Below are positions 2,737 to 21,266 of a stretch of 21,266 bases of DNA, one piece after another. Source of the stretch: a virus; IMG/VR virus record IMGVR_UViG_3300034022_001554, positions 1 to 21,266 of that record; one strand, 5' to 3'. A program made the translations under genes and the position numbers. How positions within the stretch are numbered: position 1 is the first letter of the stretch; every line of letters starts with the position of its first letter. A model generated the notes under the pieces. That model did no database searches. It was given only the letters and a program-made list of their open reading frames with translations, and was not told the DNA's origin.

Positions 2737-3168
2737 CTACTTTTTCCATAAAACTTTAACATGAGCGCTGTGTATTTTTACACCAATAAATTCGTTGTAA
2801 AAATCATCAGTTAGCAACACTTCCCTATCAAACTGTTCCTTTGCTTCCATATAAGACAACTCGCCTTTAGACTTGCCAAGATATATTATTCGACGAATAA
2901 AGTCTGATTTGCGAAACTCTACAAGCTCCTTTACTTTTTCGCTGCTACCATAGTATTTTTCCCAGTCGCTCTGTACACACTTTTTTCTTTTGCGAGTTTT
3001 GCCTTTTAGTGGAGCTAGTTTTTTCACACTAGATATTAGTTTTTTTCCGATATATTTTTTACCATTTAGGCTATCAGTTATTTCATACACAAACCCAATG
3101 TATCCTTCATCAATTTTATCTTGGGCAAGTTCACGAGTAAATGGAAGTTCATTGTATAACCAAGTCAT
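2737..3168 (-). CDS. GIY-YIG-like putative nuclease
   Basis: A 143-residue protein with GFVYEITDSLNGKKYIGKK at residues 25-43. This matches the first two strands of the GIY-YIG nuclease fold, with GFVY in place of GIY and YIG intact. Downstream are a basic stretch (KGKTRKRKK), DWEKYYGSS, and EAKEQFDREVLL, which could supply the catalytic Arg/Glu region. Similar single-domain proteins are a conserved T4-like phage family. It is not the same as T4 DenA in sequence. It is free-standing within the operon, and neither flanking gene is interrupted, so a selfish homing role is not evident. Fold assignment is moderately sure; substrate and activity are unknown. Confidence 0.65.
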   Translation of the reverse strand: MTWLYNELPFTRELAQDKIDEGYIGFVYEITDSLNGKKYIGKKLISSVKKLAPLKGKTRKRKKCVQSDWEKYYGSSEKVKELVEFRKSDFIRRIIYLGKSKGELSYMEAKEQFDREVLLTDDFYNEFIGVKIHSAHVKVLWKK

Positions 3169-19113: not shown

Positions 19114-20283
19114 TTACACCTTTATGTCGCTATAGTCTCGACTTTTTCGTTGGCTACTAAATGGGGTGTGCACTGCTGGCGAGGAGTCGCTGTCGTTTGT
19201 AATGTTTGCCATTGGATCAGAAATATCATATAGTCTCATTTTTGCCAGGTCAATGCCAACAGTAAATCGTTTATTTGTTGTTGGGTCGTTATAACGATTC
19301 TTAAGTTGCTTTACCATAATCTGATTCATCTTATCAAGTTGTTCAGTGCGTATAAATGCAAGCATTAAGTCAGCAGTTGCTGGCAGTCCGAAACTTTCTG
19401 AGGTGTCAGTAATTTCGACATCGCTGCTATTAAATCCGCCACGAGTAACTTGAGTCGCACTCCAAATTGGAACGTTAAACTCTACAGCAAGTCCACGAAG
19501 TTCCTCAGCAATACTCTTGATAAAGCTATATGTATTAACACTTCCACTCAATCCTTTAATTCGTGAACTTGCACAAATATTAAGATAGTCAACATAGACA
19601 ATATCAGGCTCAAACTTCTTTTTCAATTTTAGTTCAAGCAGTAGCGCCCTAAAGTGACCGACATGTGCCGCCGCTGTAGGATATTCCTTTACAATTAGTT
19701 TGCCGCGAGTGCGTTTAGACACACTGTCTACTCGTGAATGAAATTCATGTTGAGAAAGGTCTTTAATCTTATCAATACGAATATCAAGTAGATTGGCATC
19801 AATGCGCTCCGCAATCTTTTCCTCAGCCATTTCAAGTGTAATATAGAGTACGTTTCGTCCTTGAGCAAGGGCTGCAGACGCCATATGACACATGCCCAAA
19901 CTCTTGCCGCAACCAGTATTATGCGAAGAAACTCCATCAGTATAATACCTGTGATTTTCGTGATCAACTGTGATATCTACAATTGGAATTTGCTGCCCAG
20001 TTTTCGTAACGATACCAATTTGATACCCATCTTCAGTTAAGTATTCTTGTTTTTTATGTACGAGATCTTTAGCATATTGCCAACCATCAACAGTTTCAAA
20101 CAAATGATTTTCATTAACTCGGATAACTTTGCCGCTATTAAGAAGTAGAATATATTCTTCCCACATTCCTTTATCAACAAATGCTGATACTGGAACAAAT
20201 CCATCTGGAGAATCTACTTCTATAGTGTATCCTTCGTTTAGCAAAGTTTCAACTTCTTTAATTTTAATAGTTTTTTCAGTCAT
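19114..20283 (-). CDS. 41: gp41 replicative helicase, C-terminal half, fused to split-intein C-fragment
   Basis: A 389-residue protein made of an intein C-fragment (1-122) and the C-terminal helicase domain of the T4 gp41/DnaB family (123-389). The extein begins TGCGKSLGMCHMASAA, the second part of Walker A. It continues with LYITLEMAEEKIAERIDANL (catalytic E151), FEPDIVYVDYLNIC (Walker B D232), SATQVTRGGF (Q278), SFGLPATADLMLAFIRTE and MVKQLKNRYNDP. These align closely with T4 gp41. Alone it lacks the N-terminal hexamerisation/primase-contact part and half the P-loop, so it should be inactive until spliced to the product of the gene at 21082. After splicing, Gly is joined to T123 to restore AGTGCGKS. 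The ATG at 20283 has no clear Shine-Dalgarno. Confidence 0.93.
   Translation of the reverse strand: MTEKTIKIKEVETLLNEGYTIEVDSPDGFVPVSAFVDKGMWEEYILLLNSGKVIRVNENHLFETVDGWQYAKDLVHKKQEYLTEDGYQIGIVTKTGQQIPIVDITVDHENHRYYTDGVSSHNTGCGKSLGMCHMASAALAQGRNVLYITLEMAEEKIAERIDANLLDIRIDKIKDLSQHEFHSRVDSVSKRTRGKLIVKEYPTAAAHVGHFRALLLELKLKKKFEPDIVYVDYLNICASSRIKGLSGSVNTYSFIKSIAEELRGLAVEFNVPIWSATQVTRGGFNSSDVEITDTSESFGLPATADLMLAFIRTEQLDKMNQIMVKQLKNRYNDPTTNKRFTVGIDLAKMRLYDISDPMANITNDSDSSPAVHTPFSSQRKSRDYSDIKV
19918..20283 (-). other. split intein C-fragment (IntC, 122 residues)
   Basis: This is residues 1-122 of the C-half protein. The intein Hint fold is visible from VDSPDGFVPVSAFVDKG through the block B region GKVIRVNENHLFETVDGW (H60; the usual Thr of TxxH is N57) to blocks F and G: IVDITVDHENHRYYTDG with H111, then VSSHN with penultimate H121 and terminal N122. 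The +1 extein residue is Thr. No endonuclease domain lies inside. Because nearly the whole intein is here, the partner fragment must be very short. Confidence 0.92.
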
Positions 20284-20299
20284 ATAAAGGTGTGATTTG

Positions 20300-20307
20300 T
20301 ATAAATA
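20300..20307 (+). promoter_or_regulatory. late promoter TATAAATA for the HNH gene
   Basis: A perfect T4 late consensus on the plus strand, 29 bases before the HNH ATG at 20337. It implies that the endonuclease is made late, from the strand opposite to gp41. Confidence 0.7.
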
Positions 20308-20336
20308 TAATTTTAGCCGGAACGGGAATCAATCTC

Positions 20337-21152
20337 ATGAAATTTTACTCTCAACTCTATTATAACCTATGTAATGAAAATGTAAATAACAAAATTCATT
20401 ATTGTAGAGGATCAAACATACATAAACATCATATCATCCCACGACATGCTGGCGGAGGAGAAGACGAGAGTAATTTTACTTATCTTAGTATTAGACATCA
20501 TATAATTGCCCATTTCTTATTATGGAAAATTCATGGAATGGCTAATGATTTGCGATCAATGCATATGTTGGGGGCAAAGTTAACATACGAACAGCGGAGT
20601 ATTGTTGGTAAATGGTGTTATGAAAATAAAATAGGAATGTTTTCATTTAGCAAAGAAGAGAAGGCAGAAATTTCACGAAGAAATGGTAAAATGGCAAAAG
20701 AAAGAGAAACTGGCATTCATAATCCAGAAAACTTTTCAAAATTTGCTTCACTGGGTGGAAAAGCTTCAATAGTTTCACCTAATAACCCATGGACATATTG
20801 GGCCACTCGTGAGGGGAGATCAACTCGAGCAAGTTTGGGGGGAAAATCGCACGTCGGAAAAGTATGGATCCATAAAGATGATGTAATAACACGATGTCTA
20901 TATAGCGAAATTAGCAAAAAAATAGATGATGGGTGGCAATATGGTATGAAAGACGGCGGCAAGGAATATGTAAATAATGGAGAGAAAACATTTCGTATTC
21001 AAACCGAGAAAATATTTGAATTGCTTTTGCGTGGTTGGCAATTAGGAAAGGCACCAAATTACCAACCAGATCGTAAGCGGTCTAAGAAAGAATTTTCTTA
21101 TGAATCCTTACTCGAATTGGAGTCTCAGGGTGAACACAGCCTGCAAGGATAA
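20337..21152 (+). CDS. HNH homing endonuclease in the fractured helicase locus
   Basis: A 271-residue protein and the only plus-strand gene here. The HNH core is NIHKHHIIPRHAGGGEDESN (H31, H32, N46) followed by FTYLSIRHHIIAHFLL (H54, H55, H59), a standard phage homing-endonuclease layout. Basic helical stretches (SRRNGKMAKERE, SLGGKAS, SLGGKSHVGK) look like DNA-binding spacers. The tail has two copies of a repeat ending in GW and G: VWIHKDDVITRCLYSEISKK to DDGWQYG, and YVNNGEKTFRIQTEKIFELL to RGWQLG, as in NUMOD-like units. The ATG at 20337 is preferred to upstream non-ATG starts. Its last 71 bases are antisense to the end of the helicase N-half gene. It lies exactly between the two intein halves. 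Confidence 0.85.
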   Translation: MKFYSQLYYNLCNENVNNKIHYCRGSNIHKHHIIPRHAGGGEDESNFTYLSIRHHIIAHFLLWKIHGMANDLRSMHMLGAKLTYEQRSIVGKWCYENKIGMFSFSKEEKAEISRRNGKMAKERETGIHNPENFSKFASLGGKASIVSPNNPWTYWATREGRSTRASLGGKSHVGKVWIHKDDVITRCLYSEISKKIDDGWQYGMKDGGKEYVNNGEKTFRIQTEKIFELLLRGWQLGKAPNYQPDRKRSKKEFSYESLLELESQGEHSLQG

Positions 21153-21266
21153 TGTTTAGTGTTTTACGAGGGATGCCTCCACCAGTAATTGTATTAAACA
21201 TCTCAAGATCAAATGGGATTTTATCTTCGGTCTTGTGATAAAACTCATATCGCTGATTTATATTTT
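21082..21266 (-). CDS. 41: gp41 replicative helicase, N-terminal half (3' end only), fused to split-intein N-fragment
   Basis: The last 60 residues are visible; the gene starts beyond the right edge. The extein reads YEFYHKTEDKIPFDLEMFNT, then ITGGGIPRKTLNIILAG. This matches T4 gp41 just before its P-loop (KVPFRLPFFNKITKGGL, NKTLNVIMAG). After this Gly comes the 18-residue intein N-fragment starting with Cys, then a TAG stop. The Walker A motif is thus cut after its second residue. The 3' end overlaps the convergent HNH gene by 71 bases. The product needs the C-half made from 20283 to become a helicase. Confidence 0.92.
   Translation of the reverse strand, partial: NINQRYEFYHKTEDKIPFDLEMFNTITGGGIPRKTLNIILAGCVHPETPIRVRIHKKILS
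21085..21138 (-). other. split intein N-fragment (IntN, 18 residues)
   Basis: This encodes CVHPETPIRVRIHKKILS followed by TAG. Cys1 is the expected splice nucleophile, and the CV---TPI-V pattern is a normal intein block A. Ordinary split inteins have N-fragments of roughly 90-120 residues. This very short one matches the atypically split class known from metagenomes (AceL-TerL and VidaL types). Confidence 0.9.

What the first reader, a model, noticed from the sequence alone, without database searches (positions are those of the whole stretch)
19918..21138. gp41 helicase gene fractured by an atypically split intein with an 18-residue N-fragment
Seen in the sequence: an extein ending IILAG, then Cys and 17 further intein residues and a TAG (21082). 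On the other side of an inserted gene, a separate ATG frame encodes the remaining 122 intein residues ending SSHN, then TGCGKS and the rest of gp41. The break falls inside Walker A, so neither half can hydrolyse NTP alone. Established: split inteins at this helicase site (gp41-1, gp41-8) and fractured phage genes are known, and rare inteins split near residue 20 exist (AceL-TerL, VidaL). Inference: this phage makes its replicative helicase only by protein trans-splicing, with a very short IntN peptide.
Basis: partly seen in the sequence, partly recalled or inferred. Interest (0 to 1): 0.95.

Follow-up and report, generated by a model that had tools for sequence, protein, structure and literature searches.

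The report
Split-intein helicase with its own mobiliser
In this phage the replication helicase gene is cut in two by a self-joining protein splicer (a split intein) with a DNA-cutting "homing" gene lodged backwards inside it; the whole unit looks mobile and widespread, and the homing gene's switch region carries a look-alike of the helicase site it probably attacks.

Summary
The - strand gp41 helicase stops after an 18-residue IntN (Cys 21138, TAG 21084-21082) and resumes at ATG 20283 with a 122-residue IntC ending SSHN|TGCGKS, inside Walker A. The inserted gene (20337-21152, + strand, antisense) is an HNH homing endonuclease (HEG). The intein is a homologue of VidaL, broken at the same place. 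It is no freak: I found 45 distinct IntN (14-21 aa); of 59 further HEG relatives, 52 lie antisense between both halves. A relative 93% identical over 2 kb carries the intein uninterrupted, and that allele is predicted to fold as one (pLDDT 94.7). IntN-HEG-IntC has moved as a block between diverged gp41 genes in at least one pair.

New here: the HEG's late-promoter leader contains NIILAG|TG codons, a mimic of the intein-free gp41 junction. Across viral contigs, promoter plus mimic core gave 82 stretches; 68 of 80 listed lead into this HEG (many near-copies), against 10 for a reversed-motif control. This resembles I-TevI's autorepression operator and suggests the HEG targets intein-free gp41. 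Trans-splicing, cleavage and repression are inferred, not shown.

The parts
21139..21264 (-). end of gp41 N-extein (gene runs off the record), ...KTLNIILAG
21085..21138 (-). IntN, 18 residues CVHPETPIRVRIHKKILS (Cys1 = 21138-21136)
21082..21084 (-). TAG stop ending the N-half
   Evidence: same stop in close relatives
20337..21152 (+). HNH homing endonuclease gene (271 aa, phrog_655), antisense to gp41; its 3' end overlaps IntN
20300..20307 (+). T4-type late promoter TATAAATA (consensus recalled) of the HEG; the only exact one on the + strand of the window
20304..20326 (+). mimic of the intein-free gp41 junction, codons N-I-I-L-A-G|T-G, overlapping the promoter (putative operator)
19918..20283 (-). 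IntC, 122 residues, ATG 20283, ends SSHN
19114..19917 (-). gp41 C-extein, TGCGKS..., +1 residue Thr, DnaB-like helicase

Best explanation
The gp41 helicase is made as two polypeptides. The N-half ends in an 18-residue IntN, the C-half starts with a 122-residue IntC; the pair refolds as a VidaL-type class 1 intein (Cys1, NENH block B, HN end, Thr+1) and joins AG to TGCGKS, restoring Walker A (inferred). Most likely the split exists because a free-standing HNH homing endonuclease gene, pointing the other way, sits in the intein at the S1 position. IntN, HEG and IntC travel as one mobile unit between gp41 genes (shown by a sequence block in one pair, hinted in others); the HEG most likely cuts intein-free gp41 across the NIILAG|TG codons (inferred from the mimic in its leader).
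For: Anatomy. Family: IntC vs VidaL 1.2e-10, profile 2.3e-16; counting VidaL's published 16 residues on its chain, it reads IRLTKKG then MIEEKKVTV where the window reads VRIHKKILS* then MTEKTIKI, so the break is at the same place. Fold: the contiguous allele L002, to which the window IntC is 96% identical, gives pLDDT 94.7, and 6vgv is the best PDB match, TM 0.87. Filled and empty pair: L002/L006, 93% identical DNA over 2011 bases from IntC onward, read straight through. Recurrence: 45 distinct IntN, 14-21 aa; HEG antisense between both halves in 52 of 59 loci, beside one half in 6, none seen in 1. Selection: dN/dS 0.06-0.09 for IntC and 0.11-0.16 for HEG, 4 pairs. Mobility: L011 vs L016 are 90-100% identical in 60-base windows from Cys1 to near the end of IntC, 41-85% in the N-extein and 60-86% in the C-extein; fourfold sites 0.10-0.14 inside, 0.56-0.62 outside. 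Mimic. No intron RNA in Rfam.
Against: No splicing, cleavage or binding was measured. Intein models score below their curated cut-offs (NCBIfam intein_Cterm 13.3 vs 15.6 on the window IntC; Pfam Intein_splicing hit 2 of 16 members at E up to 1). L003 vs L011 shows no block of excess identity, so transfer is not seen in every pair. In the tree the contiguous L002 sits beside the window allele among otherwise split rows, so HEG loss with re-fusion, recombination, or a second insertion are all possible; 109 columns is little data. I see no Shine-Dalgarno sequence before the IntC ATG, so how the C-half is translated is not shown.
Confidence: 0.86

Rival explanations
1. The helicase gene is broken: the HEG landed in it and the halves are relics.
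For: Two ORFs with a stop between them. I did not search the incomplete record for a second helicase beyond the ORFs scanned.
Against: IntC dN/dS 0.06-0.09; the same two-ORF layout in dozens of contigs with the catalytic residues kept in the 16 aligned members; gp41 is a core replication gene (established knowledge).
Confidence: 0.04
2. The insert is removed or bypassed at RNA level (intron or translational bypass), so the intein is made in one piece.
For: An insert with a HEG inside is typical of phage introns; a contiguous intein exists in L002.
Against: No Rfam family on either strand at gathering score; with E up to 10 gave one chance snoRNA. The HEG is antisense. Insert lengths differ between gp41 lineages (272 to 915 bases from the N-extein end to IntC) and a start codon stands just before IntC in the split gp41 rows shown.
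Confidence: 0.03
3. The NIILAGTG-like leader is not an operator but a ribosome site, a fossil of gp41 DNA, or chance.
For: In the largest HEG clade the core lies 12-17 bases before ATG and is G-rich. In a profile scan of the window insert at least one of 300 shuffles beat it (best 18.7 vs 15.8), and L011 was not exceptional; in 23 of 39 other inserts the best hit was not in the leader.
Against: In L163 the core stands apart from a good AGGAG. The distance of the 11-base core to ATG varies -12 to -31, so it is not one reading frame. Differences fall on third codon positions: window mimic vs its own gp41 15 of 18 at positions 1-2, 1 of 9 at position 3. Promoter plus core: 68 of 80 listed stretches lead into this HEG; reversed motif 10 stretches in all. 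Other TATAAATA sites: 2 of 112 have the core and both are leaders of this HEG, leaving 0 of 110.
Confidence: 0.3

Closest known systems
VidaL split intein (PDB 6vgv/6vgw)
   Same: Hint fold, break after the second beta strand (S1, PMC13014065 passages), IntN of 16 aa with a KK tail
   Different: VidaL is much nearer to a UvsX-site intein (L036, 1.3e-34); here the host gene is the gp41 helicase at Walker A, IntN 18 aa
Fractured genes with split inteins and a HEG between the halves (Dassa 2009; recalled, paper not held; seen only as a reference and in passages on the MIJ3 PolB split intein with an HNH HEG, PMC6892783)
   Same: two half genes, split intein, free HEG between
   Different: S1 rather than canonical break; HEG antisense, phrog_655; homing-site mimic on its late promoter. 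Whether Dassa's cases share any of these I could not check
gp41-1 split intein (PDB 6qaz)
   Same: same host gene
   Different: other site (TRSG(Y/F)|S(S/N)SDV) and canonical break; gp41-1-like and S1 inteins coexist in L202-L204
I-TevI and its operator (PMC2988022, passages)
   Same: mimic of the homing site overlapping the HEG's T4 late promoter
   Different: I-TevI is a GIY-YIG enzyme in a group I intron; here an HNH enzyme in a split intein, binding untested
T4 MobC/MobD HNH homing endonucleases
   Same: weak similarity of the HNH end (28% over 54% of the window HEG; 46% over 33% of the L191 HEG)
   Different: no listed phage record covers 80% of the window HEG; context different

Membership tests
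Class 1 intein | Cys/Ser1, block B His, block F, penultimate His plus Asn, nucleophile at +1 | tested here: met
   Cys1; NENH; VDITVDHENHRYY; SSHN; Thr+1. Motif names recalled. Family HMMs below their cut-offs.
Class 1 intein | Hint fold | tested here: met
   Predicted, and on the contiguous near-identical allele L002, not on the joined window halves: pLDDT 94.7, best match 6vgv TM 0.87
Split intein | halves in separate ORFs that ligate in trans | tested here: inconclusive
   Separate ORFs met; ligation not testable here
VidaL-type atypical (S1) split | very short IntN ending after strand 2, same break as VidaL | tested here: met
   S1 definition and 15-35 aa range from PMC13014065 passages
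Homing endonuclease | nuclease motif and HEG family match | tested here: met
   phrog_655 6.6e-14; HNH: 9 of 9 members hit PF01844 at E up to 1, but the window is below cut-off (15.6 vs 21.4 bits)
Homing endonuclease | cuts the allele that lacks the element | not testable with these tools
   only indirect: mobile block, mimic
gp41-1 family | same insertion site as gp41-1 | tested here: not met
I-TevI-like autorepressed HEG | homing-site mimic overlapping a late promoter | tested here: met
   that gp41 is the homing site is itself inferred
I-TevI-like autorepressed HEG | binding without cleavage, repression | not testable with these tools
   -

The most novel reading that the evidence does not exclude
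The HEG lodged in the split helicase intein recognises intein-free gp41 at the LAG|TG codons, tolerates third-position changes, and shuts off its own late promoter by binding a built-in mimic of that site: an I-TevI-like control circuit evolved independently in HNH enzymes of split inteins, with a second, hairpin type of leader in sister lineages.
Probability: 0.55. Interest if true: 0.75.

Novelty: new variant of a known kind. Interest (0 to 1): 0.62.

Why it matters
It gives a natural 'with and without' pair (split with HEG, contiguous without), 93% identical over 2 kb, so how split inteins are born or healed becomes testable. It points to where a split-intein HEG binds, read from its own promoter. 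It supplies many new very short IntN, two of only 14 residues, under the 15 called shortest characterised in PMC10189870 (abstract and passages), useful for protein semisynthesis if active.

Tried and rejected
Group I/II intron: no Rfam match. Pseudogene: low dN/dS. Assembly or sequencing fault: the same IntN and stop in a second contig and the layout in relatives. Isolated phages with this gp41 element: none seen. The window IntC hits 297 phage records, all under 60% identity, of which I saw the 40 best: UvsX/RecA, terminase, structural, hypothetical or unannotated places; the L191 IntC hits 12 records, UvsX/RecA, structural or hypothetical. The HEG hits 453 records with none covering 80% (40 listed; 16 records at 60-80% identity over a part were not looked at); the L191 HEG 79 records, all under 60% (30 listed). 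Origin of the L002 linker: no convincing source in the five inserts, the window or L002 itself. Mimic in the Paride UvsX insert: none found, best 14 of 24. Mimic in L027, L030, L033, L034, L039: none. Papers: the listings of searches (titles and abstract starts, often only part of the papers found) showed nothing on a Walker A gp41 split intein or an operator mimic of its HEG; only openly licensed PMC papers are held, so this does not prove absence. I recall that Lake Vida inteins in a T4-like helicase have been named; not verified.

Full report
What is there. The window is a whole 21,266-base virus record. Between them, on the + strand, lies a 271-residue HNH homing endonuclease of phrog_655. 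Its last codons are read from the antisense of IntN and of the end of the N-extein.

What kind of intein. IntC finds VidaL at 1.2e-10; a 16-row profile gives 2.3e-16. VidaL breaks at the same place, counting its 16 published residues on the chain. Passages of PMC13014065 call this position S1 and give VidaL 16 aa and PolB16 15 aa. The contiguous allele L002 is predicted with pLDDT 94.7 and matches 6vgv best. Curated intein models reach only sub-threshold scores, so annotation pipelines may miss it.

How common. IntC relatives: 44 loci in viral contigs. Contiguous at the gp41 site: L002, L006, L025, L028, L029, L031, L032; L036 is contiguous at a UvsX-like site. Scanning the loci then held gave 103 split, 7 contiguous and 5 cut rows, near-copies, the window twice and contigs fetched twice included. 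45 distinct IntN of 14-21 residues were found with a pattern that demands CVHPxT, so odd ones are missed. HEG relatives: 80 of 131 kept; of the 59 beyond the window's own group, 52 lie between both intein halves on the other strand, 6 beside one half (4 IntC, 2 IntN), 1 has none by pattern. Among the 80 gp41 relatives kept of a capped list, 76 are intein-free and 4 carry an intein; the nearest intein-free one, L048, is 73% identical in the C-extein.

Filled and empty site. L002/L006 match the window at 93% over 2011 bases from IntC onward and 89% over 168 bases of N-extein and IntN, but read CVHPETPIRVRHSNCKV-ETIKI without stop or HEG. On a tree of 63 IntC rows L002 pairs with the window (support 96/80) inside a group of nine otherwise split rows (97/99); the labels contiguous/split need 4 changes (drawn with a midpoint root). 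The likeliest reading is loss of the HEG with re-fusion, but recombination or repeated insertion is not excluded. L034 (272 bases from the N-extein end to IntC) and L232 have no HEG detected and are still split; L232 keeps the promoter and mimic.

Mobility. Between L011 and L016 identity jumps at Cys1 to 90-100% and falls again at about the end of IntC; exteins are 41-86%. Fourfold sites: HEG 0.14 and IntC 0.10 against 0.56 and 0.62 in the exteins. Window vs L002: IntC 0.07, C-extein 0.31, N-extein 0.46 (6 of 13 sites). L003 vs L011 shows no such block. So the three parts have moved together at least once.

The mimic. The HEG's late promoter TATAAATA (20300-20307) is the only exact one on the + strand of the window; the - strand has six. 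It overlaps AATATAATTTTAGCCGGAACGGG, codons N-I-I-L-A-G-T-G, which is the gp41 junction with the intein absent. The codon pattern AAYATHATHYTNGCNGGNACNGG hits once in the window and in none of 100 shuffles; the short core GCNGGNACNGG hits twice, expected 0.16. In the window's group it is conserved with changes mainly at third codon positions. L011-type leaders have a stop just upstream in that frame and no ATG, GTG or TTG between, so there it is not kept as protein. Of 54 distinct HEG leaders 31 have GCNGGNAC (one of them, L151, within a leader of the second type below); besides the window's group these are HEGs about 40-52% identical to the window's. In leaders with TATAAATA the 11-base core is in 21 of 42; of 112 other TATAAATA sites 2 had it, and both are leaders of this HEG that my filter missed. 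A scan of all viral contigs for promoter plus core gave 82 stretches; of the 80 listed, 68 lead into this HEG and 68 have an antisense half of the intein (67 have both features), 11 have neither. The reversed motif gave 10 stretches. There are 24 distinct motif strings at the element and 10 in the background, so near-copies inflate the first number. Against it: the strict profile scan was weak for the window (at least one of 300 shuffles higher) and null for L011, L027, L030, L033, L034 and L039; in 39 other inserts the best hit lay in the leader in 16, on the HEG strand in 12 of them. Passages of PMC2988022 describe the same layout for I-TevI, shown to repress itself, with I-TevII and I-TevIII as likely cases. 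I therefore infer, at about 0.55, that the HEG binds intein-free gp41 across the insertion point and controls itself through the mimic.

Second leader type. Fifteen leaders have a hairpin upstream of the HEG start: 96.6% of cells paired, 8 of 10 pairs with changes on both sides, no slid version above 44%; the rows were chosen by eye and the helix read from one of them, which favours it. In 10 of these loci Rfam gave only a tRNA elsewhere in L148.

Noticed in passing
L147-L151, L158-L160, L173, L174, L182, L185, L195, L196, L198, upstream of the HEG: Covarying RNA/DNA hairpin upstream of the HEG start, mostly after a late promoter (8 of 10 pairs with compensatory changes); no Rfam match to it in the 10 loci searched. 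Possibly another control element.
   Followed up: partly
L202, L203, L204 (gp41-1-like IntC only in L174, L025): gp41 carries both this Walker A intein and a gp41-1-like split intein at another site, so the helicase would be assembled from three polypeptides; the S1 IntN was not found in the stretches held of L203 and L204.
   Followed up: partly
L190, L201: IntN of only 14 residues (CVHPETKVKIRFRK, CVHPETKVKIRFKK), under the 15 published as shortest characterised.
   Followed up: no
L206 (Pseudomonas phage Paride OR805295.1, 5971-9016): UvsX split at its Walker A with IntN CLPETAKVKIRLSKKQS and a 477-residue gene of unknown function between, on the same strand: a VidaL-like split intein in a cultured phage; ten similar Pseudomonas phage records are. 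Passages on relative MIJ3 mention only its PolB intein.
   Followed up: partly
L034; L232: Split intein without a detected HEG; L232 keeps late promoter and mimic, as if the HEG was deleted and the split stayed.
   Followed up: partly
window 21085-21149: IntN, and the end of the N-extein, are read from one strand and the HEG C-terminus from the other; the first 33 bases of IntN are identical in window, L017 and L021 although exteins differ.
   Followed up: partly
window 2737-3168, - strand: SegE-type GIY-YIG endonuclease, E=2.6e-30, next to the RNase H gene: a second putative homing gene in the record.
   Followed up: no
L207 (Klebsiella phage Menlow, terminase large subunit): Distant relative of the intein inside a single uninterrupted TerL CDS.
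   Followed up: no
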